Source: a virus. Taken from it: a stretch of DNA of 64,000 nucleotides. The DNA lies in the IMG/VR virus record IMGVR_UViG_3300027791_000007, positions 84,444 through 148,443 of that record; one strand, written 5' to 3'. The position numbers were made by a program, and so were the translations under genes. The notes under the pieces are model-generated. The model saw only the letters and a list, made by a program, of their open reading frames with translations, was not told the DNA's origin and searched no databases. This document shows positions 1-28,374 of the stretch, in pieces. The first letter of the stretch is position 1, and every line of letters begins with the position of its first letter.

Positions 1-767
1 CTTGATTTGTGATTCTTACAGTGAATAATATTACCGACAACATCTGTACCTTCTTTATCTTTTCTTTTAGATAAGAAGATAATTGATGAGGCTGCATACT
101 TCAATCCAGAACCACCACCCATTTCCTTAGTAGGAAACATAGAACCCATAGAGTCATATGTGTGATTTGTTACAATCATTGGGATACCAGCTTTACCAAG
201 TTTCAAAGTCAACACTCTAAATGCAGCCTTAAGAACTTGTGCTCGTGTCATGTCTCTAGTTTCTTTTCCTGCTTCTGTATCCTCTACTTCCTTTGTAGTA
301 GATAACATACCAAGTGAATCTAAACACATCATCATAGGACGTTTTACATCCACATCTTGCTGAGAAAATCTATCTGCAATTTTAATCGCTTGTGTTCTAA
401 ACTCTTGTACAGTAGTAACTGGCATCATAACCATCCTAGTTGGGTCAATACCCCTATCAACTACCATCTGTTTAGTAATAGCACTTTCTGATTCAAAGTA
501 AACTACACCACCATCTGGATTTGCATCCAAAAAGTTCTTTACCATTCCCATCAAAAAGAATGTCTTACCAGTTGCACTTTCACCAGCAAGAGCAGTAATT
601 TTGTTTGCAGGCAATCCACCATACAAACTACCACTCAATAGTGCATTGAAAATGTAACTACCAGTATCTACAAAGTTTTCTACGTCACCAGCGGCAACAC
701 CATCGGATACTAAATCAGCATACTCATTTCCAGTTATTTTAATTATGTCTTTTAAAAAATCATTCAT
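1..767 (-). CDS. uvsX: UvsX RecA-like recombinase (C-terminus beyond window)
   Basis: Strand-exchange protein of T4-type recombination-dependent replication; it forms filaments on ssDNA with help from UvsY (27306-27731). About 255 residues are visible. A Walker A loop GESATGKT lies near residue 63, and a segment reading [11 protein letters not shown] supplies the Walker B-like strand, followed by the RecA-type loop region ([11 protein letters not shown]). The ATG at 767-765 overlaps the stop of the MazG-like gene by 8 bp and has a GGAG ribosome site, so the two genes are translationally coupled. The C-terminal end lies off the left edge. Identification is firm from the Walker region and the T4-like context. 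Confidence 0.93.
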
Positions 768-1140
768 AAATCACTCCTTCTAAATTAGGTTCTTCATAAT
801 TTGGGCCTTTCATGACCTTACCATCTTTTCGATACATGGGTTGACCATCTTCACCTAATTTTGTCATATTAGATCGTTGAACCTCATCAAAACATTTGTC
901 TAAGTCTAATCCAAATGTATGTCCAGCACCATAAACGACATATAAAATATCAGTTAATGCATCTGCCACATCTACAAGTGTACCACTTTCGCAAGCTTCT
1001 TCTAGTTCATTCAGTTCTTCTCGTATTAAATCAATCCTCAAATCCACTTCTTCATCTGTTGGCCATTGAGGATTTTCTCGTATTTTCTGCTTGAAAGCAG
1101 ACATAAAGTTTTCGACTTTGTTAAAGTTTGTTTGATTCAT
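760..1140 (-). CDS. mazG: MazG-like nucleotide pyrophosphohydrolase
   Basis: Small all-alpha NTP pyrophosphohydrolase-type protein of 126 residues. The metal-binding signature is visible as EELNELEEA (about residues 41-49) followed by [15 protein letters not shown] (about 57-71). Marine T4-like phages commonly carry such a gene, and proposed roles are nucleotide sanitation or altering host (p)ppGpp-linked signalling; the substrate cannot be told from sequence. It is first in a two-gene unit with uvsX and has its own early-type promoter (1147-1175). The promoter -10 lies only 6 bp from the ATG; its TAGGAT could equally act as a Shine-Dalgarno sequence, so the message may be leaderless. Confidence 0.85.
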
Positions 1141-1146
1141 TTGTAG

Positions 1147-1175
1147 ATCCTATCATAATTAGCGTTGTTTGTCAA
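1147..1175 (-). promoter_or_regulatory. Early-type sigma70 promoter for mazG-uvsX
   Basis: On the minus strand TTGACA (1175-1170), 17-bp spacer, TAGGAT (1152-1147). The -35 overlaps the TGA stop of the Mom-like gene. It matches the other TTGACA-17-TAnnnT promoters in the window. The -10 is weaker than in the other copies. Confidence 0.6.
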
Positions 1176-1978
1176 GTAAAAAATTCACTTAATGTTGCAA
1201 CTCCGTGTTTGTCTGCAACTTTATTTACATTACTAGAGTTGTGGTTTGTTACAGTACCATCTATAAATGGTAGTGTCTTTGTGAGAGTATATTTTTCTTC
1301 GCCTGGTTTCTTTATTTTCCATTGTAAATCAACATCTTTGGGATAATTGATATTCCAATCCATAGTGGACTGTTTAAGATACTTCTTAGCCTTTTTATTT
1401 AGTGGGTAAATATATCTAAATTGTTTACCCCATACTCTACTAAATCCTAATTCACCCATCTTCTTATCACTTGGTCTTGGGCCATACTTAGTATCCATAC
1501 GATTCATTTCTTTTTTCATCTTTCTTTGGATAGTTCTGAAATGTACCTTTTCACCAGTTTCACTCAAATATATATCTGTCCAGATGAACCCACCAAATAA
1601 GAAGTTAGCGGCCTGATAAACATATCCTGGCTTACCAACAATTCCATCTGCCCATGTGTAAAGATATTTTATATTAGGTTTATTTTCTTTCAACCATTTA
1701 ATAGTTAAACTCTGCATTTGTGATTCTGAATTTCTGGGCATCTTATCATCCATACACATCTTACCTATTTCAAAATAATCAGCAGTTGTTAACTCTGGAA
1801 ACATCTTTCTTATTGTTCCCATAGGGTTCGTACCCCAACCCAAAGTTAGAACACCAACCAATTCTTCATCTACATATGTACCAAGATAATGTTTAGTTAG
1901 TTTGGGCATCACAGCACTATAGTGTCGTTCTTGAACGAATAGTGTTGCAACTCTCCAATCTATAGGTTTAATTATCAC
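1172..1978 (-). CDS. Mom-like GNAT-fold protein, putative DNA base modification
   Basis: A 268-residue protein resembling the phage Mu Mom/GNAT-like family. Visible signatures: HYS near residues 19-21, a beta-strand VGVLTLGWG (41-49) as in GNAT folds, NSESQ (83-87), and YTWADGIVGKPGYVYQAANF (107-126), which matches the Mom-type pattern of an aromatic, a D, then GYVYQA-NF. Mu Mom converts adenine to a methylcarbamoyl derivative that blocks restriction; whether this homologue does the same is inference. The C-terminal 80 residues are lysine-rich and unassigned. Neighbours are an HNH nuclease and two glycosyltransferases, which fits a DNA-modification or counter-defence island. It ends inside the mazG promoter. 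It could also be a general N-acyltransferase. Confidence 0.6.
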   Translation of the reverse strand: MIIKPIDWRVATLFVQERHYSAVMPKLTKHYLGTYVDEELVGVLTLGWGTNPMGTIRKMFPELTTADYFEIGKMCMDDKMPRNSESQMQSLTIKWLKENKPNIKYLYTWADGIVGKPGYVYQAANFLFGGFIWTDIYLSETGEKVHFRTIQRKMKKEMNRMDTKYGPRPSDKKMGELGFSRVWGKQFRYIYPLNKKAKKYLKQSTMDWNINYPKDVDLQWKIKKPGEEKYTLTKTLPFIDGTVTNHNSSNVNKVADKHGVATLSEFFT

Positions 1979-2418
1979 CCCTTATGTCTCCTCAAATAAG
2001 CGGCTCCCGCTTCTAAAACTTCTGGACGATCTAGTGAACGTCCTATCATAATATTACAATAGTCACAGATATATTCTCTTGGTGTTTCAGTTTCATGGTC
2101 ATGATCTAACACCCAAACAGTTTTTGATGTTGCAGACGATAATCCTTGAAATGCACCTCTACCTCTGATATATTCTTCATTGTCATTACAAATACCACAC
2201 TTATGATCCGACTCTGGTTTAGCTATTTCTTTTCTAACTTTATTAAGAATTTTTGTTTGGTGATTATTACACACTTTACAAATATTCTTAGTTTCTCTTG
2301 AACCATCTTTTCTGTGTCCTCTGTTTGCAAAGAGGTCTAAATGTTTTACCTCTTTACAAGAATAACACATCTTTGTATGCTCAACTTCTTCTGGGCCCCA
2401 TAATGTTTGAATAATCAT
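1975..2418 (-). CDS. Endonuclease VII-like HNH nuclease
   Basis: 147 residues with the recombination endonuclease VII (gp49) family pattern. Zinc-type Cys pairs occur at C18/C21, C47/C50, C74/C77 and C118/C121. The His-Me core is VWVLDHDHET (about 101-110), followed by YICDYCNIMIG and a C-terminal LEAGAAYLRRH helix. T4 endonuclease VII resolves Holliday junctions and debranches DNA before packaging; free-standing homologues can also be homing-type HNH nucleases, and this sequence does not decide between the two. It overlaps both neighbours by 4 bp, so it is part of a translationally coupled string with the Mom-like and glycosyltransferase genes. Confidence 0.75.
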   Translation of the reverse strand: MIIQTLWGPEEVEHTKMCYSCKEVKHLDLFANRGHRKDGSRETKNICKVCNNHQTKILNKVRKEIAKPESDHKCGICNDNEEYIRGRGAFQGLSSATSKTVWVLDHDHETETPREYICDYCNIMIGRSLDRPEVLEAGAAYLRRHKG

Positions 2419-3182
2419 ATTGGTAACTTTCCAACTTGACTATCTGTATACATTTTCTTCCACTTGATTTTAATCTTCTTGAAATCTCCACCCATAACAT
2501 TCTCTTTAATGCCATTCCATGATACATGGTTAGGATACATCTCAATAAGTTTTGCATGAGTATCATTAATTAAATCTAAAGTTCTCCATTCGTTACATCC
2601 ACCCTCAACTAGAATCTTAGAAATATAACCAAACTCATCCCATATACGATTTGTATGTCCTTTTTCAAACAACTGTAATACCATATGAATATCTTCACAT
2701 ACTGGTAATGACCAATCTAGTTTTGTCTCATCAGGCATTTTATTACCATTGAAAAAGAAACCACAGTTTACAGCAGCGATATCAATAAATGGTTTTCCTG
2801 CTGGTGGTAGATTACCTTGACGAAAACCAGCGAAATCAACTTCATCTAACCATCGACTAGTTTCTGATAACATATAATCCCAATCCTTAGCGTCCATAAA
2901 TCTTTTAGATTTTTCTTTACCAGGCGTTCTACGAATGAATTTTAAGTCATCGTCAAACACTCCGTATTTGATATTCATAGATTTCATATATATCCAGCGC
3001 CTAGTCTCCGTGATCCCAATATCATCATCAGGCAAAACCATTATGGGATAATTTGGGTATAAATGTTTTTCCTTCGGTTGCACTACAAGAGTAGTAATAG
3101 ATTGTGTAGGGCCTGACAAATTATCAAAAGTAATTTGGTTGTGAGATCGGCCTAAGGTCGGTATATAAATCTGATCTATCAT
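2415..3182 (-). CDS. GT-A-type glycosyltransferase, candidate DNA base glycosyltransferase
   Basis: 255 residues with a nucleotide-diphosphosugar (GT-A) layout: N-terminal strand and IPTLGR loop (7-12), MVLPDDDIGITETRRW (about 48-63) and the metal-binding acid cluster FDDDL (76-80). This order (IP-x-x-GR, then P--GI--TR, then DDDL) resembles the TET/JBP-associated glycosyltransferases described in phages that decorate hydroxymethylated bases. No TET/JBP dioxygenase is visible in this window, so a DNA substrate is inference from neighbours (Mom-like, HNH). Alternative: glycosyltransferase acting on cell-surface or virion sugars. Overlaps both flanking genes by 4 bp. Confidence 0.6.
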   Translation of the reverse strand: MIDQIYIPTLGRSHNQITFDNLSGPTQSITTLVVQPKEKHLYPNYPIMVLPDDDIGITETRRWIYMKSMNIKYGVFDDDLKFIRRTPGKEKSKRFMDAKDWDYMLSETSRWLDEVDFAGFRQGNLPPAGKPFIDIAAVNCGFFFNGNKMPDETKLDWSLPVCEDIHMVLQLFEKGHTNRIWDEFGYISKILVEGGCNEWRTLDLINDTHAKLIEMYPNHVSWNGIKENVMGGDFKKIKIKWKKMYTDSQVGKLPI

Positions 3183-4165
3183 ATCGCAGTGTCCATTCTA
3201 TTTGTAAATTCGTGATAGTAAGCGTCCAGAGATAACAATACTTGTTTGTAGTTGTTTCTATATTCTTCTAACTTACTGTTAAAGAAATCTTCATCTCTTA
3301 ATTGTAAAATCTTTTCTTCTAGTTCTTCAAACTCTTGTACTCGTTGCCATTCATCAATTCTGTATGTATTATTCTTATCATAGTCTCTCCATACAAATGG
3401 CACCATTCCAATTGAAAGTGCTTCTGGATACCTACTAGTTGTGGCATATGGGTCAATCCAGTTAAAACAAAGTGTACTTCTTGCTGGTTCTAACATTGGA
3501 TATAATTGTTTCCAATCTTTAATCCATGCGGCTTGTCGTTTTACCCCACTAGGAAAACCACCCACCATTACAGTAGATAGTTGTGAACGATAGATTTTAC
3601 GAATTGTTTTCTCTCTATCGTTACCATGTTTCATACGACCCCAGTAGGCCCAATCAACAGTTTTACCTTCACTCATCATATCATAAAGAGGATTTTTTAA
3701 AGTCTGAATAAAATGATATTTCATACCGTGGATATTTCCACTAAAATCTATTTCATCTATCGTAGTAAATCTTGTAATTGTAGTACCCTTTAAAGTATGC
3801 ACTCTATACAACTCTTCTGTGTCACCCCTATCTGAACGAAACATAATCACCTTTTTATCTCTAAAGAACGGGCGAATAGTTTCCATATGACTTTCAGACT
3901 TTGCAAGGTCTTTTGGATTCATCTGTAACTCACCATGATACCTAAACTCTGAATCACTAGGTATGACAATTACATCGGCCCACTCAATATTCTCTGGTGT
4001 TCGTTTGGGTCTACTTTCATCAAACGATACGTTATATGTTCTGTATTCATGTTGTGGGTTTGCTTTCATCCACTTGACATAGTTTTCAAAGAAACTATCT
4101 AGGACAGTTTCTAATGGGCCATTATACTTTACGTTACTTCGTAATCTTGCAATTGTTATTTTCAT
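3179..4165 (-). CDS. Putative GT-B-like glycosyltransferase
   Basis: 328 residues without a clear database-level signature by eye. Residues 1-10 form a Rossmann-like first strand (MKITIARLR), an internal strand reads ADVIVIPSDSE, and near residue 245 the segment TTSRYPEALSIGMVPFVWRDYD resembles the C-terminal donor-site region of GT-B enzymes (E in a P-E-A-L-S-I-G-M-V-P pattern). The C-terminus is helical and charged. It lies between the GT-A enzyme and the GIY-YIG/ParB-like protein with 4-bp and 1-bp overlaps, so it belongs to the same operon. Role as second sugar transferase of a two-step modification is inference only. Confidence 0.4.
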   Translation of the reverse strand: MKITIARLRSNVKYNGPLETVLDSFFENYVKWMKANPQHEYRTYNVSFDESRPKRTPENIEWADVIVIPSDSEFRYHGELQMNPKDLAKSESHMETIRPFFRDKKVIMFRSDRGDTEELYRVHTLKGTTITRFTTIDEIDFSGNIHGMKYHFIQTLKNPLYDMMSEGKTVDWAYWGRMKHGNDREKTIRKIYRSQLSTVMVGGFPSGVKRQAAWIKDWKQLYPMLEPARSTLCFNWIDPYATTSRYPEALSIGMVPFVWRDYDKNNTYRIDEWQRVQEFEELEEKILQLRDEDFFNSKLEEYRNNYKQVLLSLDAYYHEFTNRMDTAI

Positions 4166-5376
4166 TACATATCTTCTAAAGAGTTTTTGATCTTATATTC
4201 TAATGAAATCACCTCTACATTAAAACCCTTAGGCGCAATCCAAAACTCAATGTCATCCATCACCTTAGGCAACCACTTCTTGTTCCACTCTTGCATGGTC
4301 TTCCAATTGGGATGGGTGATGTAAATAGTTGCATACTTCTTCTTTGACTTTGCCTTTACAAGTAACTTTAACTCATCTTGTAACGAATGTAAGTTAAACT
4401 TTCCAGATGAAGCGTGCATTGAAATTGAATCCTTATCAGTAGCATTTTCAAGAATAGTAGCTAATTCAGACTTGTATAGTGACCACTTCTTCCAAATCCA
4501 ACCATCAGGCAACTTATCATTTAGAGTAATCGTTGTCTGTGCCTTATTGATAATCCAGTTGATTTGTCTTGTGCTCCAATTCATATCTTCCAAGTATTTA
4601 ATATTATCTGTTGAGTCGGCCGGAACACCTTTCTTATTAAATGCAGCAACAATCCATGCTACTTGGTCGTCTGGATGACCAACCTTTGTAGCCTTTTTCT
4701 GCTGAGGATTTAACAGATTAGCAAGAATTTGTAACTGTGTGACATCAAACTGATTCCAAATCTTCTTTGAGATATACATAACTGGCACCTTAATTACATG
4801 AGAAACCCTCTTTGCGGCCGCAGTAGTGTGATTACCATCAAGAATGATATCATCACCATTCTTTCCATATCCCTTTAATACAATAATTGGATCAAAACTA
4901 TCAATCTTTCCATGTAAGTCAATCATAGCATCTGCAAGAACTCCAACATGATTAGTGTCAGTATTTTCTACCCTTGTCTGATACCTCGCAAGTTCAGTAA
5001 TTATTGACTTCTCAATCAACTCAATAGGTAATTCCTTAGTCTTAATCATTTGAGATAATTCCCTCAATTCTAAATTCTTACCTACTGTCTTGAGGTACTT
5101 ACCACCACCATTTGACTTGTTGTAGTATTCTTCATTGTTGTTCGCATCTACTTCTAATAACATATTTCTCTCCAATGTCGCCATATTAATTTTAGTTCCT
5201 TGTTTCACAATCTTGTATTCATTATCACCCTCAGCAAAATCTTCCATGAAAATAGGACACTTACTTGAATGAATATAATTAGAAATAGTTTCTCCTTTTT
5301 TTAAAACATGATAACCAATATACTTCTTTCCAGTTCCATTAACTGTGATTTCGTAAACATAAGCTTCTTGATTCAT
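4165..5376 (-). CDS. GIY-YIG-like / ParB-like domain fusion
   Basis: 403 residues with two apparent nuclease-type domains. Residues 1-95 look like a GIY-YIG module: YVYEIT (6-11), YIGYHV (19-24), a Glu-containing helix TLERNMLLEVDA (67-78) and an Asn/Gly segment YYNKSNGGG (84-92). Residues about 115-260 resemble a ParB/sulfiredoxin fold: the strand DDIILDGNHTTAAAKR (175-190) corresponds to the ParB -DG-HR-AA- motif, with Thr in place of the usual Arg. The rest is lysine-rich and unassigned. ParB-like domains recur in phage base-modification loci, but chromosome-partition or nicking roles are equally possible. It is the first gene behind a strong promoter (5409-5437). Confidence 0.55.
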   Translation of the reverse strand: MNQEAYVYEITVNGTGKKYIGYHVLKKGETISNYIHSSKCPIFMEDFAEGDNEYKIVKQGTKINMATLERNMLLEVDANNNEEYYNKSNGGGKYLKTVGKNLELRELSQMIKTKELPIELIEKSIITELARYQTRVENTDTNHVGVLADAMIDLHGKIDSFDPIIVLKGYGKNGDDIILDGNHTTAAAKRVSHVIKVPVMYISKKIWNQFDVTQLQILANLLNPQQKKATKVGHPDDQVAWIVAAFNKKGVPADSTDNIKYLEDMNWSTRQINWIINKAQTTITLNDKLPDGWIWKKWSLYKSELATILENATDKDSISMHASSGKFNLHSLQDELKLLVKAKSKKKYATIYITHPNWKTMQEWNKKWLPKVMDDIEFWIAPKGFNVEVISLEYKIKNSLEDM

Positions 5377-5408
5377 ATTTTTTCTTTCTCTTGATTGTTT
5401 ATACTAAT

Positions 5409-5437
5409 AGTATAACAGCCAAAAGTGCATTTGTCAA
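5409..5437 (-). promoter_or_regulatory. Early-type sigma70 promoter for the 1.2-5.4 kb island
   Basis: Minus strand TTGACA (5437-5432), exactly 17 bp, TATACT (5414-5409). The start codon of the GIY-YIG/ParB-like gene lies 33 bp downstream with a purine-rich leader (GAGAAAG). Drives the operon down to the Mom-like gene. Confidence 0.75.
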
Positions 5438-5483
5438 GTAGGGCAAAAATCTCCAGTAAAAACAAAGACTTAAATTTAACGTA

Positions 5484-5503
5484 AAATTTGTGTTTTAGCA
5501 CAA
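5484..5503 (-). terminator. Weak stem-loop downstream of the DruA-like gene
   Basis: Inverted repeat TTGTG/CACAA with a 6-nt loop (5488-5503), followed on the minus strand by a short ATTTT run. It lies between the stop of the 5511-6623 gene and the next promoter, the right place for a terminator, but the stem is only 5 bp and AT-rich. Confidence 0.3.
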
Positions 5504-5510
5504 CTGCGAA

Positions 5511-6623
5511 TCACCTTATTATATCAATCTTATCCATAGTATCTTTATTCCAGACTTCAAGTTCTTTTCTTAACTTGTCCTCTCTAATCATTTTAGTGTA
5601 TCTTTTAGTAGAAAGCTTCTTCCACCACTGTACTACATTTTCAAGTTCAAATCTATCATAGTTTTCTGCTTTTGTCAAGGTATTTGTTTCACCTAGTAAA
5701 ACATTTCTTGCATTTTCATATCCATATGTTGACATATAAAATCTTTTCTGTGTGGTCACTTCTCCTGCTTTATTCATTGCATCTGTAAATAACTGATAGG
5801 CCTTTGAGTCATGTTGTTTTAATGATGCCTTAACCGTTCCCACCATCTTGGTCTGCATCTTTAACTTTCTTGAACTTGCACCTTTATGTATTAGGTCTTC
5901 ACCACCGTTTCTTTCAGTAAACCAATCTCTCATCTCCATATAGATTTCTTCTCCAAGTGTCAATAGAAACTTAGATTGAGTATCACCTTTGTATCTTAGA
6001 TATGGGCGCATACCATCATACATACTACCACCTTTGATATTACCATAAAGACTTGTAGTTTCAAATAGACAGAACTTTGTATTATACTTCTTATTCAACA
6101 TACGTCTAGTTGCATGAGAACAACAAATAGCTGCAAGTAACTTACCACCAAGATAATTATACCCAAATGGTTGTGCAGGCACAATATTAAATCCCATGAT
6201 AGCACGTTTGTTAAAGATATCTAAATCTGGAACACCACCAAGAAAATCATTTCTAGGTTTAGAGTTAATTAGTGGACTACCATAACGTATAAATCCTACA
6301 ATAGTATTTGTAGTTGTTTCCTTAACAACTAGTTTCAAAGTCTTGCCTGGGTTTTCATCTGGACTGAATGATGCAGTCTTTTCTAATAGTGTATCATATA
6401 CCTTGTTTGGTATTTCTACAACTTGAAAGTTCATATCCTCTGGATGCATATCAAAGTCTTGAAACAAATCATCTTCAATTGACATGCCAGGCAGTGGTGA
6501 CGGAATATCTTTAACTCTTTCAATCTTTCTTACACGAAAGTAATCATCAATGCGATTAAAATCTTTGAAGTATTTCATCAATTTTGTAGCAGCGTATATT
6601 GAGTCTTGTCTGTCTAGTATCAT
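5511..6623 (-). CDS. DruA/DUF4338-like protein of unknown function
   Basis: 370 residues. The core (about 95-215) reads like the DUF4338 family of the Druantia defence protein DruA: a beta-hairpin IVGFIRYGSPLIN (108-120), then RNDFLGG, a strand IMGFNIVPAQPFG (142-154), a helix LGGKLLAAICCSHATRRM (158-175) and LFETTSLYGNIKGG (187-199). The same order of elements (substrate loop, strand, long helix with C/S/H, E-T strand) is shared by GNAT-like Mom proteins. In a phage the role could be anti-defence, base modification or an inter-phage exclusion factor. Starts 4 bp inside the gp43 reading frame end (ATGA coupling). Family assignment is tentative. Confidence 0.4.
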   Translation of the reverse strand: MILDRQDSIYAATKLMKYFKDFNRIDDYFRVRKIERVKDIPSPLPGMSIEDDLFQDFDMHPEDMNFQVVEIPNKVYDTLLEKTASFSPDENPGKTLKLVVKETTTNTIVGFIRYGSPLINSKPRNDFLGGVPDLDIFNKRAIMGFNIVPAQPFGYNYLGGKLLAAICCSHATRRMLNKKYNTKFCLFETTSLYGNIKGGSMYDGMRPYLRYKGDTQSKFLLTLGEEIYMEMRDWFTERNGGEDLIHKGASSRKLKMQTKMVGTVKASLKQHDSKAYQLFTDAMNKAGEVTTQKRFYMSTYGYENARNVLLGETNTLTKAENYDRFELENVVQWWKKLSTKRYTKMIREDKLRKELEVWNKDTMDKIDIIR

Positions 6624-9106
6624 AGAAAATCCATTAAGTTACCTTGTTGGCCATATGTGCGATCCACTGTCCATTTAAGTTTGGACACAATAAAGTTTAG
6701 TGGTTCAACAAATGACTTTTCAAATTGTTGTTCATAATCAATCATACTCTGTAATCCAAACTCATCAGGCATTTTTGTAATGAATGAAATAGAACTTGAT
6801 TGGTGAGCATTTGGTATTCGTAAGTGCAAGAATTTAATCTTATCCCCTTCTTGAATGTATGGGTATTTGTTTACTAGTTTCTTTTGTTTGAGAAGATGGT
6901 TGTATAGAATTGCTCCCTTACAATGAATAGGGGCTCCTTTAGCAAATAGGGAACTAGGATCACTCCATTTCGTCAAACCGTTTACACTTCTAGGATATGC
7001 AATCATCTCTGCTGGCATGTTCATAAACTCTTCTCTAAAGTCTCGTATAAACTTATTTAGCATTTTCTCATCACCACTCATGATGATTTTCAAACCTTCT
7101 TTAATTTTGTTTCTACAAGGTTCTGGCGTAGAAGATTTTACTGCTTCAATACCCATAATCTTTAGTTTAGGTTCTTGATAACGAACACCCTCATTATCCC
7201 ACACATTAAGAATATATCGTTTCTTAGCAGTCCATATACCCTTGTCAGCGATGACTTCTCTTGACATCTCCATCTTCTGTTGGTATGCTTTCATGTAAGT
7301 AGCGAGTTCTTCATAACATGAACTGATATATGGTTCTATCTTATCCTTTGCAATGCTGTCTAGAAAATCAATTGGACTAGATGGATTAAACTTTTCTACC
7401 AAAGAACCGAATGTAACATAGATGGAATCTGTATCAGAAGCAACCACATAATCTTGATTATCAGTTTTGAGTAAATTGTTCATATAACTATTAATCTTGT
7501 TTTCAATCCAACGAATAGATAATTGTCCAGAAGTTGTAACAGCCTCTGCCATTGCAAGGGAGTAGTATCTGAAATACTGATTACCGATAGCACCATAAGC
7601 ACTGTTCAATGCAATCTTTCTTGCCATCTGAATATTATCATACTTAGAAATCTTTTTAAGTAGTTTTGGTTCTTTGGTATCTTCATATTCTTGTTTTGCC
7701 TGTAACATCTTCTTCTTGAATACGACACGATCATTGTACATGTTTTCCATCAACTCTGGAAGAAAACCTTTTGTATCTGTTCTGAACAATGCACCGTTTG
7801 GTGTCATAGTGGTATCTTTGAAAATAGATGTATCAACTTCCTTGTTTAGAAGTTTGTCCACCTTCATACCTTTTACCGTATCCAGAGATTTTAATGTTTC
7901 TGGGGAAATATTATATTGCATCATTAAGTGTGGATACAAAGAGTTCAAGTCAAAAGACATAATCCATTTATGTTCACCGACTATAGGGTCTTTGACATAT
8001 GCACCCTCAAACTTCTCTGCCTTTTCTGAATGACGTTTCTGTGGAATTACAATATTCTTTTTCTTTAGATAATTGTAAATCAGAACATCCCAATATTTAA
8101 CCGAACCAAGAACATCCATGTAATTAACTTTGGCTTCATATGCCATAGTCAAACACAATTCAATAAGTCTCATCTTATCTTCAATACGATCAACTAGTTC
8201 CACATCAAGAATGTTATAGTCAATAAAAGATTGAAAGTCTTTTGTATACCACTCACTGAAAGTTTCATATGGATTTGTATCTTTCTTTTGTCCAAGTTCT
8301 ACATATGCGATATGAGTAAGTGCATATGACTCTTGACTTGTGTATGTAAACTTGTGATATAAGTCCAAGTAATCCAAGTGAGCAACACCTCTAATATCGT
8401 AGAGTTGATGATTCCTACCATTTCTGAAAACTTCTTTATCTTGAACCATACGCCATGGTGATAATCTTTTTAGTTCATCCTCACCAAACAAGTTCTTCAT
8501 ACGATTACATAGATAAGGAATATCAAAAAATTCTGTATTCCAACCAGTGATAATATCTGGTGGGCTGTTTTCCCAAAAGATAAGAAACTCTTTAAGTAAA
8601 TGTATTTCACTCTCACATTCAATGTAAGTTACATCGTCACGACTATTAGTATATTTACCAACACCCCAAACAATAATTTGTTTGTTAGAATGGTTCTTTA
8701 AAGTAATTGATAGAAAAGGTTCTGCAGCCTCTTGTGGATTAGGAAACCCATTCTCACATTTAACCTCAATGTCAATAGTGTATATTAGAATCTGATCTAA
8801 ATCCCAATTGACATCATTAGGATATTCTTCTGAAAGATAAGTATATGGATATTGGTTTAACCCCAATACCAACGATTTTTGATTCTCGTATGATTTTTGC
8901 CACTCTTTCGCATCTTTGATATTATCAAATTTGATTGGGGCAGCATTCTTGCCAGTAAGAGTTTTGAAACCGCTTACCTTTTCGCAGGGCGTGTACAAAG
9001 TTGGTTGGTATTTAACCTTACGAACTTGTCGTTTGCCGTTTACAACTTCTCTTAGAAAAAGTTGGTTTCCCCACTGTAAAATATTTGTGTAAAAGTTTAT
9101 CATCAT
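6620..9106 (-). CDS. 43: DNA polymerase gp43 (family B)
   Basis: Replicative polymerase with proofreading exonuclease, 828 residues in one uninterrupted frame. Exonuclease motifs: DIE (112-114), GWNTEFFD (188-195) and YNILD (297-301). Polymerase motifs: FDLNSLYP (385-392), KIALNSAYG (497-505) and SDTDS (557-561). It acts with the clamp gp45, loader gp44/62 and probably RegA-controlled translation. Translation can begin at either of two consecutive ATG codons (9106 or 9103). The upstream promoter -10 ends only 5 bp before the first ATG, which predicts a leaderless or nearly leaderless transcript. Confidence 0.98.
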   Translation of the reverse strand: MMINFYTNILQWGNQLFLREVVNGKRQVRKVKYQPTLYTPCEKVSGFKTLTGKNAAPIKFDNIKDAKEWQKSYENQKSLVLGLNQYPYTYLSEEYPNDVNWDLDQILIYTIDIEVKCENGFPNPQEAAEPFLSITLKNHSNKQIIVWGVGKYTNSRDDVTYIECESEIHLLKEFLIFWENSPPDIITGWNTEFFDIPYLCNRMKNLFGEDELKRLSPWRMVQDKEVFRNGRNHQLYDIRGVAHLDYLDLYHKFTYTSQESYALTHIAYVELGQKKDTNPYETFSEWYTKDFQSFIDYNILDVELVDRIEDKMRLIELCLTMAYEAKVNYMDVLGSVKYWDVLIYNYLKKKNIVIPQKRHSEKAEKFEGAYVKDPIVGEHKWIMSFDLNSLYPHLMMQYNISPETLKSLDTVKGMKVDKLLNKEVDTSIFKDTTMTPNGALFRTDTKGFLPELMENMYNDRVVFKKKMLQAKQEYEDTKEPKLLKKISKYDNIQMARKIALNSAYGAIGNQYFRYYSLAMAEAVTTSGQLSIRWIENKINSYMNNLLKTDNQDYVVASDTDSIYVTFGSLVEKFNPSSPIDFLDSIAKDKIEPYISSCYEELATYMKAYQQKMEMSREVIADKGIWTAKKRYILNVWDNEGVRYQEPKLKIMGIEAVKSSTPEPCRNKIKEGLKIIMSGDEKMLNKFIRDFREEFMNMPAEMIAYPRSVNGLTKWSDPSSLFAKGAPIHCKGAILYNHLLKQKKLVNKYPYIQEGDKIKFLHLRIPNAHQSSSISFITKMPDEFGLQSMIDYEQQFEKSFVEPLNFIVSKLKWTVDRTYGQQGNLMDFL

Positions 9107-9111
9107 GTTCC

Positions 9112-9140
9112 ATTGTATAGTAAATTGTTGGCATTGTCAA
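9112..9140 (-). promoter_or_regulatory. Early-type sigma70 promoter for gp43
   Basis: Minus strand TTGACA (9140-9135), 17-bp spacer, TACAAT (9117-9112). It shares the extended block AAAGACTTGACAATG with the 16825 site. Predicted start of transcription falls at the gp43 ATG itself. Confidence 0.75.
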
Positions 9141-9145
9141 GTCTT

Positions 9146-9394
9146 TTATTCAAATAATTCTATTTGTTTTTTCTTGTTAACTGGTTTCATTGGGAAATAA
9201 ATATTAATCATTTCTAGTCTATCATGTGCGGCAGATAGTTTATCTAGTTCAGCCATAACTGCTTCTGTTACATCTGAATGCTCTCCAATTCCTGCCGGCA
9301 TTGTTTGATACACTGCAATATTTGCCTTGTGAACTTCAATTTGTCCTTCTGCATGTTTTTTTGCAGCAAAAATAATTTGTTCGCCTACTTTCAT
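9146..9394 (-). CDS. Conserved-looking small helical protein, function unknown
   Basis: 82 residues, mostly amphipathic helix, with two histidine-containing segments and a lysine-rich C-terminus (KPVNKKKQIELFE). The ending QIELFE resembles a clamp-interaction tail (Q-x-x-L-F type), which would suit a gene wedged between gp43 and the RimK-like gene in the replication cluster; this is inference. Good Shine-Dalgarno (AAAGGAG) and ATGA overlap with the upstream RimK-like gene support that it is translated. Confidence 0.6.
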   Translation of the reverse strand: MKVGEQIIFAAKKHAEGQIEVHKANIAVYQTMPAGIGEHSDVTEAVMAELDKLSAAHDRLEMINIYFPMKPVNKKKQIELFE

Positions 9395-10863
9395 TTTGTA
9401 CTCCTTTTATTGAGTTTTTGGGGTAAATCGTCCTCATCTGTTTTATCGCCTCTTTCAATCCAATCGGATAGAACGAATCTCCTATTTGGATTGACACTTA
9501 CTTGAAACAAAGTCATAATATCTCTGTTAGCAAGAAAAGTACTTCTTGAATCTTTTTCAGTAAGTCCTATTGGTACATCTAAATATTTTCTATTATTAAA
9601 TGTTATGTTTACGTTAACAATAGGTCTTTCATCTATTTTTCCAACATGTTCTGGTTTGGAAACACCTTGTAAGGCACTTGTAAATTTCTTTCCGTCTTTT
9701 TCCCACTTAACTGTTCTGCCGTTAATATCTACTTTGTCAACAACAAACATTGATGCATGTGTTCCATTTCCAGTATCGAACTTTGCTCTTAGTGGGCCGT
9801 AACCATCTATTTCAATTCTTTCTACATATCCAGATTCAGTAGGAAATGAATGTCTACGATTATTTGGTATCATAATAAACTCTAATAACTTTTCTACAAT
9901 CTTAGATGGATTTGCATCACCAATATATGCATTGTTGTCTGATTCTGTATCAGTAGCATCATACAATGCAAAATTAGAACCAATACCAGCAGAACCATTA
10001 CACTCTAAAACGTAAACATCTCCACTTACAATAGCATGGTCAACACCAACAACATATGCACCAACTGAACGAGATGCCCTTAGAATCACTTCTCTTTCTC
10101 TATCATTCAATTTATATGGTTCTGTTGTAGCACCTCTATGTCTATTAGACCTAAAATCTTTCTTTGCAGAAATCCTCTTTGTTGATGCTAGTATTTTACC
10201 ACCAACTACAATTGTTCTTATATCACTATCGAATTTAAAATATTCTTGAATTAAAAGTTCAGCACCAAATTTCCATAATGACTGAACATTAGAAACTAAA
10301 CTCTCGTAATCTTTAGCAATAGAAACACCAATACCTTGTGTACCAGTAATTGTTTTAATGATAACTGGAAACTTACCACCAATTCTTTTTAATCCATCTT
10401 CTAGAGACTTTTCATTTGAAACTATTGATGTTCTAGGAGTCGGTATACTGTTTCTTTCAAAAGATAAGAACGCTGACATTTTATTATCACATGTCAACAT
10501 ACCTTCTCTATTGTTAATCATAAACGAACCAGACTTCTCAAAAGATGTTAGTAGTGCGAGTCCGATTTCATCTTCTAAAACTCCAGCACGAACAAAACAC
10601 ACAGTCTTTCTAGTGTTAAATTCTACATCATTATCGTTACCATCAAAATTAGATACTGTTATTATTCCAGTTTCTAAATCATTAGCAGCGATCCATGCAT
10701 CTCTAACATTAATGATGTGACATTTAATATTACGTTTTTCGCAAGCTTTCTGTAAAAGATTGCTTACTAGTTCTGGTTTTTTAGATTTAACTTTGGTTAG
10801 AATTGCTACTTCAATATCAGTGTCAACTTTGGCCTCAGTAAAAAAATCGGCAAATTTTTCCAT
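9391..10863 (-). CDS. RimK-like ATP-grasp ligase fused to RimB-like aspartic protease domain
   Basis: 490 residues in two parts. Residues 1-335 are ATP-grasp of the RimK type (which adds glutamates to the ribosomal protein S6 C-terminus): DNKMSAFLSFERNSIPTPRT (126-145), VIIKTITGTQGIGV (167-180), the lid region, and the metal-binding strand VLECNGSAGIG (285-295). Residues about 346-475 match the retropepsin-like ATP-dependent Zn protease/RimB family: VERIEIDGYGPLRAKFDTGNGTHA (split positions 348-370, catalytic-type DTG at 363-365), RPIV (413-416) and NRDIM. In bacteria RimK and RimB act together on S6. Phage targeting of the host ribosome is inference. Coupled by ATGA to the next gene. Confidence 0.75.
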   Translation of the reverse strand: MEKFADFFTEAKVDTDIEVAILTKVKSKKPELVSNLLQKACEKRNIKCHIINVRDAWIAANDLETGIITVSNFDGNDNDVEFNTRKTVCFVRAGVLEDEIGLALLTSFEKSGSFMINNREGMLTCDNKMSAFLSFERNSIPTPRTSIVSNEKSLEDGLKRIGGKFPVIIKTITGTQGIGVSIAKDYESLVSNVQSLWKFGAELLIQEYFKFDSDIRTIVVGGKILASTKRISAKKDFRSNRHRGATTEPYKLNDREREVILRASRSVGAYVVGVDHAIVSGDVYVLECNGSAGIGSNFALYDATDTESDNNAYIGDANPSKIVEKLLEFIMIPNNRRHSFPTESGYVERIEIDGYGPLRAKFDTGNGTHASMFVVDKVDINGRTVKWEKDGKKFTSALQGVSKPEHVGKIDERPIVNVNITFNNRKYLDVPIGLTEKDSRSTFLANRDIMTLFQVSVNPNRRFVLSDWIERGDKTDEDDLPQKLNKRSTK

Positions 10864-15531: not shown

Positions 15532-15604
15532 TGGAGCGGGCAGATGGAATTGAACCACCTTCTTCAATTTGGAAATTGACATAATACCTTTATACGATGC
15601 CCGC
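15532..15604 (-). tRNA. tRNA-Gly (UCC) with short anticodon loop
   Basis: Acceptor stem GCGGGCA pairs with TGCCCGC, followed by T and an encoded CCA. A D-arm with GG, and a T-arm GGTGG-TTCAATT-CCATC are intact. The anticodon arm is TCAAT-TTCCAA-ATTGA: a 5-bp stem closing only 6 nt (or a 4-bp stem closing 8 nt), one base fewer than the expected 7-nt loop, giving a 73-nt gene. The overall sequence is close to bacterial tRNA-Gly(UCC). The missing base may be real or a homopolymer assembly error. It sits just 3' of CobS on the same strand. Confidence 0.85.
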
Positions 15605-20671: not shown

Positions 20672-22377
20672 TAAGTAGCAACATGACTAAAGTTTCTTAT
20701 CTTTTCAAATCTTATTGAGTTTCTAAATTTGTCTGTTAATTGGTCACCCTTATGTGATATAACAAATATGTTTTCATTTTCTAAAGTTCCCAGTATTTTT
20801 AAGAACTCTTCTGTTCCAGTTCCATCTAGTGAACTATCAAATATTTCATCAAGTATTAATAGATTAGTATTCGTAGAGTTTTTCATTTTTGCAATTGCAC
20901 GCCAAGTAAATAGTAATGCGAGGTCTATTCGCATTTTCTCACCCTCACTAAATGAAGCATAATTAAAATCATCACGGAATCTAGACTTAATAGTTTCATT
21001 AAAGTTTTCATCTAAATTAAAGTTTACATAAAATTCCATAGATTGTAAGTAAGCATTAATTAGTTTATTCATGATAGGAAGATACTGTTTAATAATCTTA
21101 GTCTTGATTCCAGTATCTTGTAACATTGCTTTTGCAGCTTCATTATATTGTTGTTCATCTTTTAAAGATGATTGTTGTTTATCTAACTCATCTAATTTAG
21201 TCTGTAAATTATCTAGATTAGATTCATCTGCTGACTTTTCTTTGTTGTCCAGTTGTGTTAGTTCAGTTTCCAGTTTAATATTAAACTTCTCCAATTCAGA
21301 TTTAGAATATCCTATTGATGAAATCTCCACATCCAACTCTCTAATTTTATTAGAGTTAGACTCTATTTCTGATTGTCTCTTTTGTGTATTCTCCATCTCT
21401 ACTTTAAGCTGTTTCATACCATCTTCTAATTCTTCAAGTTGTCCTTGTTTATTAAACAGTACTTCGTCCTTAAACGATTGACTAATTTCTTGGTCACATG
21501 TTGGACAACTTTCATTATCTTTGAAAAATTGAGCAGAGTTACTATGACTTTTGTGTTTTTCTACTAATGTAGCCCGAATACCCAACATCTTTTGCAATTT
21601 TTGTTCTATCTTACTTGCATCTGAAATCTTTACTAGATATTCTTCTTTTGTAGATTTTAAACTATTAATTTGACTTTCTCTTCTAACTATCTCTTTTTCG
21701 TTTTGTTCTATCTGTCTCTTCTTATCAGTTCGTATCTTTGCTTTCTCGCTTTTACTTTCATTGATATACTTACTAGATAAATCAAATTCTGTTTGTGTAA
21801 CCTCAAACTTATGTGAAACTTCTCTAGTTTCATCTACAATATTCTTTATGTGTGTTTTTACAATCATATTCATCATTGAAAAGATTTTTATATCTAATAT
21901 CTCTTCAACAACTTCTCTTCTTTTCATTGCTTTAAGTTGCATAAACGGAGCCCATGATGCACTTCCAAGAATAACTACTTGTGTAAATGAACCATAGTTT
22001 AGTTTTAGAATTTGTTGTTCTAGTATCTTTTGATAATCTCTAGCATGCGCTTCTTGATTCACCATTACATCATCACAATAGATTTCAAACTTATTTGGTT
22101 TGATACTTCTAAATATTTTGTAGTTTTTTGTTCCGATTTGAAATGTAACTTCTACTTCTGTACCACTACCATTAATAGAATTAATCAATTGATTTTTACT
22201 AATCACTCTAAATGGTTTACCAAACAAACCAAAACATAGTGCATCCAGTATTGTAGACTTACCAGCACCGTTATCTCCAACAATAAGTGTTTGTGGGTTT
22301 CTGTCTAAATCAATACTTGTACTAGTATTGCCAGTTGATAAAAAATTCTTCCACTTCACATTCTTAAATATAATCAA
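20671..22377 (-). CDS. 46: gp46 recombination nuclease subunit (SbcC/Rad50-like)
   Basis: 568 residues. Walker A VGDNGAGKSTIL (about 33-44), long coiled coil with a zinc-hook CPTC in the centre, signature SFSEGEKMRIDLA, Walker B LLILDEIFD and a distal VISHKG histidine switch. Forms the Mre11-Rad50-like nuclease with gp47 that degrades host DNA and makes ends for UvsX recombination. Translationally coupled (ATGA) to the upstream nucleotidyltransferase. Confidence 0.96.
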   Translation of the reverse strand: MIIFKNVKWKNFLSTGNTSTSIDLDRNPQTLIVGDNGAGKSTILDALCFGLFGKPFRVISKNQLINSINGSGTEVEVTFQIGTKNYKIFRSIKPNKFEIYCDDVMVNQEAHARDYQKILEQQILKLNYGSFTQVVILGSASWAPFMQLKAMKRREVVEEILDIKIFSMMNMIVKTHIKNIVDETREVSHKFEVTQTEFDLSSKYINESKSEKAKIRTDKKRQIEQNEKEIVRRESQINSLKSTKEEYLVKISDASKIEQKLQKMLGIRATLVEKHKSHSNSAQFFKDNESCPTCDQEISQSFKDEVLFNKQGQLEELEDGMKQLKVEMENTQKRQSEIESNSNKIRELDVEISSIGYSKSELEKFNIKLETELTQLDNKEKSADESNLDNLQTKLDELDKQQSSLKDEQQYNEAAKAMLQDTGIKTKIIKQYLPIMNKLINAYLQSMEFYVNFNLDENFNETIKSRFRDDFNYASFSEGEKMRIDLALLFTWRAIAKMKNSTNTNLLILDEIFDSSLDGTGTEEFLKILGTLENENIFVISHKGDQLTDKFRNSIRFEKIRNFSHVAT

Positions 22378-22706
22378 ACTGGTATCCCCCTAATCTCTGT
22401 TGCAGATATACTTTCAATTTCTTCATCAAGTTTTTCTTGTTCAATCTTATAACCAACATCTCTGCCATATGTAATATTAACAATATTAGGAACATTCATA
22501 ATAATATAGTCAACATCATATAAGAAACCAGCATTAGATAGTTTGATTTTTACATCCACACTGTCATGATACCCTTCACCAGTATCACGAACCATTATTG
22601 CAACTTGGCCAGTCTTTGAATGAGCTCTTTTGAAAAGCTCTGTGTGTCCATCGTGCCAAGGCTGAAACCTTCCAAGCATTTGTACAGTTGGTTTTCGGCT
22701 ATCCAT
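22374..22706 (-). CDS. Cytidylyltransferase-like nucleotidyltransferase
   Basis: 110 residues. VQMLGRFQPWHDGHTELFKRA (split, about 8-28) contains the HxGH motif and the C-terminus has ISATEIR, the I-S-x-T-x-x-R motif of the nucleotidyltransferase superfamily. Related marine phage proteins join this domain to an APS kinase-like domain. Here it lies in the -1 frame relative to the kinase gene and overlaps it by 112 bp. The ATG is at an AAAATGG site where a -1 slip would fuse the two frames. Substrate unknown. Confidence 0.75.
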   Translation of the reverse strand: MDSRKPTVQMLGRFQPWHDGHTELFKRAHSKTGQVAIMVRDTGEGYHDSVDVKIKLSNAGFLYDVDYIIMNVPNIVNITYGRDVGYKIEQEKLDEEIESISATEIRGIPV

Positions 22707-23053
22707 TTTGTTATCCTTATGTCTGCTATTTTAATAGGTGGTTTGAACAGAGCATCAGTATCTTTATACGGTGATGCTTGTACGGTATCCATCCAGATCA
22801 ATATATCTGGTCTAAAGTTATTTCTTAATGCTGGTAGTGGACAAATAAATGCACTAATACTTACTGGGTCTAACTCTGCAAGTGTTCTCATCCTATTAGC
22901 TTGAATGGCTCTTCCTTGAATAGAAAAATCCCAATCATTGTATATTTTTCTTACTACATCAGCATCCCAAGTAGGAACAGATAACTCTTTTCCCAATCTA
23001 TTTGCTAACCAAGTTTTTCCACTATTGGGTAAACCCATAATCAAAATTTTCAT
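22595..23053 (-). CDS. Adenylylsulfate kinase-like P-loop protein
   Basis: 152 residues. P-loop GLPNSGKT (7-14), DADVVRKIYNDWDFS (30-44) and DILIWMDT (83-90) followed by FKPP match CysC/APS kinase-like proteins of marine phages. The last 36 residues are read from the same DNA as the start of the nucleotidyltransferase in another frame, so they may be a non-functional tail or may be replaced by frameshifting. True APS kinase activity is unproven; the family also includes other small-molecule kinases. Confidence 0.7.
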   Translation of the reverse strand: MKILIMGLPNSGKTWLANRLGKELSVPTWDADVVRKIYNDWDFSIQGRAIQANRMRTLAELDPVSISAFICPLPALRNNFRPDILIWMDTVQASPYKDTDALFKPPIKIADIRITKWIAENQLYKCLEGFSLGTMDTQSFSKELIQRLAKLQ

Positions 23054-23063
23054 AATATTTTTC

Positions 23064-24125: not shown

Positions 24126-24286
24126 ATATTGAAGGGCCCTTCTATTTCTTTTTTACGATATACTAATACAAATGCATCACAGTTTTTACATGAAAGATTT
24201 GTTTCCATATCATATTCATCCTCTAAATCATCCATATCATTATCTCCACCCCATATTAATTCGGTGTTACAGAAATAACACTTCAT
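24122..24286 (-). CDS. 54-residue zinc-ribbon-like protein
   Basis: Short gene between gp55 and gp47 with ATGA overlaps at both ends, which strongly supports translation. The protein starts MKCYFCNTELIW and later has LSCKNCDAF, giving two CxxC knuckles separated by an acidic stretch (GGDNDMDDLEDEYD). This looks like a treble-clef or ribbon zinc site. Similar small CxxC proteins occur at this place in other marine T4-like phages. Function unknown; a link to gp55 transcription is speculation. Confidence 0.7.
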   Translation of the reverse strand: MKCYFCNTELIWGGDNDMDDLEDEYDMETNLSCKNCDAFVLVYRKKEIEGPFNI

Positions 24287-24837: not shown

Positions 24838-24864
24838 CCTAATATATCCTTGTAGTTAGGTCTT

Positions 24865-24893
24865 ATACTACATCAATTTGGGGCTGTTGTCAA
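24865..24893 (-). promoter_or_regulatory. Early-type sigma70 promoter for gp55-gp47-gp46 operon
   Basis: Minus strand TTGACA (24893-24888), 17-bp spacer, TAGTAT (24870-24865); gp55 ATG is 28 bp downstream. Starts a tightly coupled operon to the methyltransferase. Confidence 0.72.
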
Positions 24894-24903
24894 GTCTTTT
24901 TTG

Positions 24904-27731: not shown

Positions 27732-27751
27732 AATATATCCTTTGTTAATAC

Positions 27752-28336: not shown

Positions 28337-28361
28337 TACAAACTCCTTACAGTTATATTTT

Positions 28362-28369: not shown

Positions 28370-28374
28370 ACGCT

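What the first reader, a model, noticed from the sequence alone, without database searches (positions are those of the whole stretch)
1172..5376. Candidate DNA hypermodification island: Mom-like, HNH, two glycosyltransferases and GIY-YIG/ParB-like fusion
Five coupled genes under one promoter combine types seen separately in phage base-modification loci: a Mom-like GNAT, a DDD-type glycosyltransferase similar to TET-associated enzymes, a second glycosyltransferase and a ParB-like domain. Mom and sugar decoration on one DNA would be a new combination. No TET, hydroxymethylase or thymidylate-type enzyme is visible in this window, so the base to be modified is unknown and a surface-sugar role for the glycosyltransferases remains open.
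Basis: partly seen in the sequence, partly recalled or inferred. Interest (0 to 1): 0.78.

Follow-up and report, generated by a model that had tools for sequence, protein, structure and literature searches.

The report
Likely DNA-sugar island in marine phage
A marine relative of phage T4 carries, between its DNA polymerase and recombinase genes, a set of enzymes that looks built to decorate its own DNA with sugars, but with a DruA/Mom-type transferase standing where T4 has its hydroxymethylase; the chemistry is untested.

Summary
The five genes exist as described: Mom (PF25680, E 8e-51), an endonuclease VII/HNH-type nuclease, TAGT (PF20691, E 5e-15), a second glycosyltransferase ("GTx") and a GIY-YIG/ParB-like fusion. 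The window is part of a 148-kb HTVC008M-like phage record.

GTx has no Pfam hit, but its predicted structure matches T4 DNA beta-glucosyltransferase best (Z 17.2; best other enzyme 14.3). It accompanies GTx in 73 of 80 viral loci, in several genomic positions; in a second GTx subfamily another DruA-like gene does so (27 of 31 loci with room). No thymidylate-synthase-type hydroxymethylase was found in the own record or in 12 of 12 other GTx-bearing records. A 2026 paper notes many phages with TAGT but no known partner; GTx is a candidate.

Best reading: a T4-like DNA glycosylation locus whose acceptor is made by a DruA/Mom-type transferase, with Mom as a separate add-on. Shown: genes, linkage, fold. 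Inferred: substrate, order of steps, product. Main rival: 2OG oxygenases make the acceptor. A glycan role is less likely but not excluded.

The parts
1..767 (-). uvsX recombinase (cut by the window edge), landmark at the downstream end
   Evidence: 69% identical to HTVC008M UvsX (G000 84194-85210)
760..1140 (-). MazG-like nucleotide pyrophosphohydrolase, overlaps uvsX by 8 bases; belongs to the uvsX end of the locus
   Evidence: PF01503 E 2e-22, phrog_671 E 2e-41
1147..1175 (-). promoter-like site (10/12, TG before -10) ahead of MazG-uvsX
   Evidence: number of sites in the region not above shuffles
1172..1978 (-). Mom DNA-modification protein, GTG start
   Evidence: PF25680 E 7.7e-51; profile of 23 relatives hits PDB 8bv8 Mom E 1.1e-26
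1975..2418 (-). endonuclease VII/HNH-type small nuclease
   Evidence: Endonuclease_7 E 8.5e-11, phrog_2633 E 6.8e-18; PADLOC REase_II E 4.2e-10
2415..3182 (-). TAGT-family glycosyltransferase (DDD motif)
   Evidence: PF20691 E 5e-15, phrog_842 E 1.2e-20; D77-D78-D79 invariant in 12 of 12 aligned
3179..4165 (-). GTx: GT-B glycosyltransferase resembling T4 DNA beta-glucosyltransferase
   Evidence: AlphaFold2 model pLDDT 76.9; Foldseek E 6.1e-7 and VIA Z 17.2 to T4 BGT
4165..5376 (-). GIY-YIG / ParB-like fusion, probable mobile nuclease
   Evidence: alignment of 17 relatives with GIY-YIG and ParB-like motifs; weak HMM hits
5409..5437 (-). promoter-like site (TTGACA-17-TATACT, TG before -10) ahead of the five-gene unit
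   Evidence: number of sites in the region not above shuffles
5511..6623 (-). DruA-like GNAT-fold transferase (PHROG 19197), overlaps DNA polymerase gene by 4 bases
   Evidence: Pfam DruA hit at E<=1 in 45 of 45 family members, best E 6.7e-12; model pLDDT 87.3, first structural match phage Mu Mom Z 9.0 over 183 residues, tied with other GNATs
6620..9106 (-). gp43 DNA polymerase, landmark at the upstream end
   Evidence: 49% identical to HTVC008M DNA polymerase

Best explanation
The locus is the counterpart of T4's 42/b-gt region: a DNA hypermodification locus inside the replication block. A DruA-like, GNAT-fold transferase (5511-6623) makes an acceptor group on phage DNA bases, in place of T4's hydroxymethylase; GTx (3179-4165), a beta-glucosyltransferase-like GT-B enzyme, puts a first sugar on it; TAGT (2415-3182) adds a second sugar, as in T2/T6. 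Mom (1172-1978) is an independent extra modification of the same genome, and the EndoVII-like and GIY-YIG/ParB-like genes are nucleases carried along (cutting unmodified DNA, or homing). Shown here: gene identities, conserved linkage, predicted fold of GTx, no TS-type hydroxymethylase found. Inferred: that DNA is the substrate, that DruA-like acts before GTx, the sugar, the base and the purpose (escape from restriction).
For: Linkage: DruA-like gene in 73 of 80 GTx loci, same strand in all 73, within 1.6 kb in 70, with flanking landmarks of at least four kinds. Repeat: in a second GTx subfamily, 36-41% identical to the window's GTx, 27 of 31 loci with >=1.5 kb downstream have a DruA-like ORF; the one tested is a Pfam DruA hit above cut-off (E 2e-19). 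Fold: the best matches of GTx are T4 BGT entries (Z 16.7-17.2); T4 AGT reaches 13.2; the best other enzyme 14.3. BGT R269 and E272 fall on R245 and E248 in 32 of 32 sequences. Synteny: T4 43-imm.1-imm-42-b-gt-segA-uvsX against 43-DruA-GIY/ParB-GTx-TAGT-HNH-Mom-MazG-uvsX. Of 22 TAGT loci 19 hold GTx; in the other 3 the contig ends at TAGT. No PF00303 in the own record nor in 12 of 12 other GTx-bearing records, including complete HTVC008M, with T4 as positive control in the same call. Cargo in the same slot includes an N6/N4 DNA methylase, a cytidylyltransferase-like gene and a second GT.
Against: Sequence comparison alone does not link GTx to BGT (hhalign probability 1%) nor DruA-like to Mom (0.5%). 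MAFFT did not align BGT D100, D258, R195 or E22 with like residues of GTx. The GTx model has three stretches under pLDDT 50. The window's DruA hit is below Pfam's cut-off (22 against 27 bits); its Mom match is tied with other GNATs, and Foldseek gives no match below 1e-3. DruA-like genes occur without GTx: six cyanophage records that carry the gene had no GTx match. GTx lacks a DruA-like gene, with room to see one, in L106, L108, L240, L241, L242 and L245; L106/L108 have 2OG oxygenases beside GTx and L241 lies in what looks like a glycan cluster. The 80 loci hold 53 distinct GTx products, so they are not 80 independent cases. The chemistry of DruA is not known to me.
Confidence: 0.5

Rival explanations
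1. DNA is glycosylated, but the acceptor is a hydroxylated pyrimidine made by one of the phage's 2OG-Fe(II) oxygenases (as in base J) or by its ThyX-type enzyme; the DruA-like protein does something else.
For: Six 2OG-Fe(II) oxygenase-like proteins among those of the record that I scanned, one of them below cut-off, and a ThyX. In L106/L108, where no DruA-like gene is near, 2OG oxygenase-like genes precede GTx (one tested by Pfam). HTVC008M has a 2OG oxygenase two genes before its GTx.
Against: No TET/JBP match in the record. The steady neighbour of GTx is the DruA-like gene, while the 2OG genes of this record lie elsewhere in the genome.
Confidence: 0.25
2. GTx and TAGT decorate a surface glycan or another small acceptor, not DNA; their place in the replication block is accidental.
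For: GT-B enzymes of bacterial glycan and other pathways also match the model (Z 11.7-14.3 in the rows shown). In L241 GTx is followed by Glyco_transf_8-like genes and a 2OG oxygenase. A cytidylyltransferase-like gene occurs in 26 of 80 GTx loci, directly before GTx in 19 (one member tested by Pfam).
Against: T4 BGT leads the ranking by nearly 3 Z units; TAGT is known from DNA glycosylation in T2/T6 (PMC13216743 and PMC13390438, passages seen); DNA methylase, Mom, nucleases and replication genes are neighbours. A pattern scan of 84,980 species genomes found one relative, beside phage-type genes (two short peptide patterns only).
Confidence: 0.12
3. A hot spot of unrelated cargo: Mom protects DNA by itself, the nucleases are homing genes, and the glycosyltransferases have no joint pathway with DruA.
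For: Contents vary strongly from phage to phage: TAGT 22, GIY-YIG/ParB-like 34, Mom 5 of 80 GTx loci; different genes lie between DruA-like and GTx.
Against: DruA-like and GTx keep together across several genomic positions and in two GTx subfamilies with different DruA-like genes.
Confidence: 0.13

Closest known systems
T4 DNA beta-glucosyltransferase locus (43-42-b-gt-uvsX)
   Same: Same place between DNA polymerase and uvsX; GTx model has the fold of BGT and keeps the R..E pair of the nucleotide site (role recalled); a GIY-YIG gene also sits there in T4 (segA).
   Different: No PF09198 match, 12-14% identity in the structural alignments; no TS-type hydroxymethylase found; a DruA-like gene stands in the place of gene 42.
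T2/T6 TAGT (beta-glucosyl-HMC-alpha-glucosyltransferase, PF20691)
   Same: 2415-3182 is a family member above cut-off with invariant DDD motif and a GT-B partner gene.
   Different: Partner is GTx and not a recognisable alpha- or beta-GT; no hydroxymethylase of the known type found in the record.
Phage Mu Mom (PF25680, PDB 8bv8)
   Same: 1172-1978 is a clear member; the residue changed in the inactive S124A structure corresponds to S86, Ser in 22 and Thr in 1 of 23 relatives.
   Different: Sits in a T4-like phage next to glycosyltransferases; no com-like regulator was looked for.
DruA of Druantia (PF14236, DUF4338, GNAT)
   Same: 5511-6623 belongs to a family of which all 45 scanned members hit the DruA model; Phold authors reported DruA-like proteins in Synechococcus phages, showing S-PRM1, a phage that carries this gene (very likely the same gene, not checked).
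   Different: Phage gene in a replication operon, paired with GTx; the other Druantia genes were not searched for.

Membership tests
Mom (PF25680) | family HMM above curated cut-off | tested here: met
   173.1 bits against 27.1
Mom (PF25680) | residue S124 of Mu Mom (inactive mutant S124A in 8bv8) conserved | tested here: met
   maps to S86, S in 22 and T in 1 of 23; the numbering offset of 9 rests on a recalled length of 241 for Mu Mom
Mom (PF25680) | modifies adenine in DNA | not testable with these tools
   needs nucleoside LC-MS
TAGT (PF20691) | family HMM above curated cut-off | tested here: met
   56.4 bits against 27.5
TAGT (PF20691) | GT-A type DDD motif | tested here: met
   D77-D78-D79 invariant in 12 of 12; the fold itself was not predicted
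TAGT (PF20691) | acts on an already glycosylated base | not testable with these tools
   reported for T2/T6 (PMC13216743 passage)
T4 DNA beta-glucosyltransferase (PF09198) | match to family HMM | tested here: not met
   no PF09198 hit among 31 GTx members at E<=1
T4 DNA beta-glucosyltransferase (PF09198) | BGT-type GT-B fold | tested here: met
   BGT entries are ranks 1-4, Z 16.7-17.2, rmsd 3.7-4.2 over 280-293 residues; predicted model, pLDDT 76.9
T4 DNA beta-glucosyltransferase (PF09198) | nucleotide-site R269 and E272 (roles recalled) | tested here: met
   R245 and E248 in 32 of 32
T4 DNA beta-glucosyltransferase (PF09198) | catalytic D100 and E22 (roles recalled; a D100A mutant is named in a PDB title) | tested here: inconclusive
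   MAFFT puts gaps at D100 and L (M in one) at E22; by eye D112 follows strand 4 as D100 does
T4 DNA beta-glucosyltransferase (PF09198) | hydroxymethylcytosine made by a TS-family hydroxymethylase | tested here: not met
   no PF00303 in the own record nor in 12 of 12 other GTx-bearing records, most of them partial
DruA (PF14236) | family HMM above curated cut-off | tested here: inconclusive
   window member 22.0 against 27 bits; 45 of 45 family members hit at E<=1, best 6.7e-12; PADLOC DruA E 4.4e-4
Druantia defence system | accompanied by the other Dru proteins | not tested
   only seven window proteins and one relative were scanned against PADLOC
GIY-YIG homing endonuclease | GIY-YIG catalytic residues | tested here: met
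   Y8, Y19, G21, H23, E69, N86 invariant in 17 of 17 (motif recalled); Pfam SegE only E 0.059

The most novel reading that the evidence does not exclude
A route to sugar-decorated DNA that needs no hydroxymethylated precursor: a DruA/Mom-type GNAT adds a small group to a base in finished DNA, and BGT-like GTx and then TAGT build a sugar chain on it. By extension DruA of Druantia would be a DNA-modifying transferase, and GTx the unrecognised partner of some of the TAGTs now called solitary.
Probability: 0.35. Interest if true: 0.92.

Novelty: new variant of a known kind. Interest (0 to 1): 0.74.

Why it matters
T-even phages are the model for glycosylated DNA, and their scheme starts with hydroxymethyl-dCMP. 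Here glycosylation-type genes persist in marine T4-like phages (one of them, HTVC008M, from a SAR11 host) in which no such starting enzyme was found, and mostly beside a transferase family (DruA) best known from a bacterial defence system. The 2026 NAR paper on T4 glucosyltransferases (PMC13216743, passages seen) counts 288 of 753 phage genomes with a TAGT but no alpha- or beta-GT and suspects unknown transferases; GTx is a concrete candidate. HTVC008M carries GTx plus two DruA-like genes and has a named laboratory host in its record, so nucleoside LC-MS of its DNA can test the idea.

Tried and rejected
Profile comparison of the DruA-like family with the Mom family gave nothing (probability 0.5%), and of GTx with T4 BGT only a short local match (1%); the case for both rests on predicted structure and, for DruA, on Pfam. 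PDB sequence searches with the GTx, DruA-like and TAGT profiles found nothing at E<=1. NCBIfam gave no credible hit for any of nine proteins. The structural match of the DruA-like model to Mom is no proof of kinship: Mom (9.0) and SpeG (8.8) are tied. A leader structure in the stretch 5377-5525 is not supported (z -0.15). A Mom-centred reading of the island was rejected: of 80 Mom loci 4 contain GTx and 7 contain TAGT (many contigs are short). The BFVD search lists mostly GT-B-type proteins, one named DNA beta-glucosyltransferase at rank 5.

Papers: ten searches. No listing showed a paper on DruA together with a phage DNA glycosyltransferase; one review (PMC12926258) holds all four words searched and was not opened. 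bioRxiv and most subscription journals are not held. Of the papers cited I saw passages only, none as a whole.

Limits of the counts: several contigs are near-identical copies of one virus (53 distinct GTx products in 80 loci), so counts are of contigs, not of independent events. The tool kept the best 80 of 194 GTx relatives and the best 80 of 85 Mom relatives. One of the 22 TAGT loci (L188) holds only the first 33 residues of TAGT. No rows were dropped. In one search the count covers the 31 of 45 loci with 1.5 kb after GTx (GTx was recognised in 44 of 45); two loci with less room also have the DruA-like gene, eleven with less room do not show it. First versions of two numbers were mended after a recount: the cytidylyltransferase-like gene (26 loci, 19 directly before GTx; one search had clustered 20), and the set of GTx-free cyanophages.


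Full report
What the window is. The window is bases 84444-148443 of an unnamed 148,443-base virus record. Many of its genes have homologues in Pelagibacter phage HTVC008M (Kyanoviridae; 147 kb) in similar order, among them polymerase, UvsX, clamp, terminase, capsid and baseplate genes. It is therefore a T4-like marine phage. Its Mom is 80% identical to that of Methylophilales phage Melnitz, annotated there as DUF465 or hypothetical.

The observation. The five genes at 1172-5376 are open frames on the minus strand, each overlapping the next by 1-4 bases. Family searches identify Mom, an endonuclease VII/HNH-type nuclease and TAGT clearly, leave the second glycosyltransferase without a match and give only weak hits for the GIY-YIG/ParB-like protein. 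An alignment of 17 relatives supports the latter as a GIY-YIG domain followed by a ParB-like domain (motifs recalled). The two best promoter-like sites of bases 1-9200 lie just ahead of this unit (5437-5409) and of the polymerase gene (9140-9112); as a class such sites are no more common than in shuffled sequence.

The neighbour left out. Scanned one by one, 45 of 45 members of its family hit DruA at E<=1, the best at 6.7e-12. Its AlphaFold2 model (pLDDT 87.3) has a GNAT fold by its matches; by VIA-align the first chain is phage Mu Mom (8bv8, Z 9.0, 183 residues), tied within one Z unit with polyamine acetyltransferases that align over 140-150 residues, and Foldseek has no match below 1e-3. 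One deposited homologue is named 'methylcarbamoylase mom'. In print, the Phold paper (PMC12774648, passages seen) reports DruA-like proteins in six Synechococcus phages and shows one of S-PRM1, a phage that one search lists with this gene; and PMC10853773 (passage seen) calls the DUF4338 domain a GNAT.

GTx. The 328-residue product of 3179-4165 has one homologue among the phage records at E<=1e-5, HTVC008M gp104 (40%, under two accessions), yet 194 relatives in IMG/VR. Its model (pLDDT 76.9, low-confidence stretches at 73-82, 140-166 and 204-208) is GT-B by its matches. Against the PDB the leading Foldseek hits are T4 beta- and alpha-glucosyltransferase (best E 6e-7), and VIA-align puts four T4 BGT entries first (Z 16.7-17.2), ahead of BshA (14.3) and other GT-B enzymes. 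A fold alone shows no function. In a MAFFT alignment BGT R269 and E272 match R245 and E248 in 32 of 32 GTx sequences and R191 matches Lys in 31; R195, D100, E22 and D258 are not matched. By eye D112, invariant, sits two residues after strand 4 as D100 does in BGT; that is a reading, not a result. No PF09198 or PF11440 hit appears among 31 GTx members; one member has a weak hit to a glycosyltransferase model (PF13524, E 0.024).

Conserved linkage. I took the 80 GTx loci and searched them with HMMs of the island families: DruA-like in 73, always on the same strand, within 1.6 kb in 70; TAGT in 22; GIY-YIG/ParB-like in 34; Mom in 5. Of the 7 without DruA-like, L109, L117, L154 and L163 have under 750 bases before GTx, L160 ends inside GTx, and L106 and L108 have room and lack it. 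Landmarks around the pair are of several kinds: polymerase and/or uvsX, a stretch upstream of the polymerase, gp3/uvsY and gp23, phoH/exonuclease, and gp44/62/regA. The 80 loci hold 53 distinct GTx products. A second search started from HTVC008M gp104: its relatives are 36-41% identical to the window's GTx; of 45 loci, 31 have at least 1.5 kb after GTx and 27 of these have a DruA-like gene; the exceptions are L240, L241, L242 and L245. The one tested here (L221) is a DruA above the Pfam cut-off. HTVC008M itself has two DruA-like genes, one two genes after its GTx and one next to its polymerase. So two GTx subfamilies are each paired with a DruA-like gene. Against this: in L241 GTx stands before Glyco_transf_8-like genes and a 2OG oxygenase, with a similar set in L245, and in L106/L108 beside 2OG oxygenase-like genes; and of eight cyanophage regions that I opened with the DruA-like gene, seven have it beside clamp-loader genes and one beside gp47/46, with no GTx (GTx search of six of these records, and of all phage records).

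No hydroxymethylase. PF00303 (thymidylate synthase and dCMP hydroxymethylase) is not found in the own record nor in 12 of 12 other GTx-bearing records, among them the complete HTVC008M and contigs of 145 and 140 kb; T4, searched in the same call, shows td and gene 42. Most of the contigs are partial, so absence there is weak. TET/JBP is not found in the own record (other records not tested). The own record has a ThyX and six 2OG-Fe(II) oxygenase-like proteins among those scanned.

T4 comparison. In T4 the order is 43, imm.1, imm, 42, b-gt, segA (GIY-YIG), uvsX. In the window it is 43, DruA-like, GIY-YIG/ParB, GTx, TAGT, HNH, Mom, MazG, uvsX. GTx thus holds the place of b-gt, and the DruA-like gene that of 42. 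This may reflect replacement or a shared hot spot; it is suggestive only.

Cargo. Around GTx relatives carry a cytidylyltransferase-like gene (26 of 80 loci, 19 directly before GTx; one member tested, PF01467 E 6e-14), a second GT-B-type gene (9 loci, one tested), and in single tested cases an FkbM methyltransferase, an N6/N4 DNA methylase and a GmrSD_N-like protein (below cut-off); MazG-like genes stand next to uvsX in several loci, by eye. Genes that act on DNA and genes that could supply activated sugars thus share the slot.

How it most likely works. Step 1, a DruA-type transferase attaches a small group to a base (inferred). Step 2, GTx transfers a sugar to it (inferred from fold and linkage). 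Step 3, TAGT extends the sugar, as reported for T2/T6 (PMC13216743, passages; T6 also in PMC13390438, passages). Mom adds its own group to adenines (recalled chemistry), as a separate layer present in few of these phages. The nucleases may cut unmodified competitor DNA or spread the island. I put DNA glycosylation at about 0.75 and DruA as acceptor maker, given that, at somewhat over half.

Relation to the literature. PMC13216743 counts 288 of 753 phage genomes with TAGT but neither alpha- nor beta-GT and suspects novel transferases (passage). GTx fits that gap for the phages seen here; whether it does for the 288 was not tested. PMC8670742 (passages) shows that enzymes of unexpected families, there a carbamoyltransferase acting with a hydroxymethylase, can build new bases; it also lists PF01503, the family of the window's MazG, among the frequent neighbours. 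None of the ten literature searches listed a paper seen to join DruA to a phage DNA glycosyltransferase, within the limits of the held library and with one four-word match, a review, left unopened.

Noticed in passing
window 45055-46553: A TctA-type tricarboxylate transporter gene split over two overlapping frames (219 and 286 aa; PF01970 halves), unusual cargo for a phage.
   Followed up: no
window 52729-54802: NodU/NolO-type carbamoyltransferase (PF16861, PF02543) followed by an Asp/Asn hydroxylase-like gene; a carbamoyltransferase of this kind acts on hydroxymethylcytosine in PMC8670742 (passages).
   Followed up: no
window 9391-10863: RimK-like ATP-grasp ligase of 490 aa near the polymerase.
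   Followed up: no
window 15532-15604: ARAGORN reports one odd tRNA with a two-base anticodon.
   Followed up: no
L005 1760-10223 (record bases 20760-29223): Cluster outside the window with three radical SAM proteins, ThyX, three pentapeptide-repeat proteins and a 2OG oxygenase.
   Followed up: no
L104 7615-8004: Small cytidylyltransferase-like gene wedged by 4-base overlaps between the DruA-like gene and GTx: a hint that the sugar donor may be made on site.
   Followed up: partly
L101 5465-6921: Possible restriction-modification pair between GTx and TAGT: a 213-aa protein without Pfam hit followed by an N6/N4 DNA methylase.
   Followed up: no
L241-L245: GTx after the ribonucleotide reductase small subunit; in L241 followed by RuvC-like and Glyco_transf_8-like genes, and no DruA-like gene seen.
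   Followed up: partly
window 48056-50470: 804-aa protein with a C-terminal GNAT domain, far from the island.
   Followed up: no
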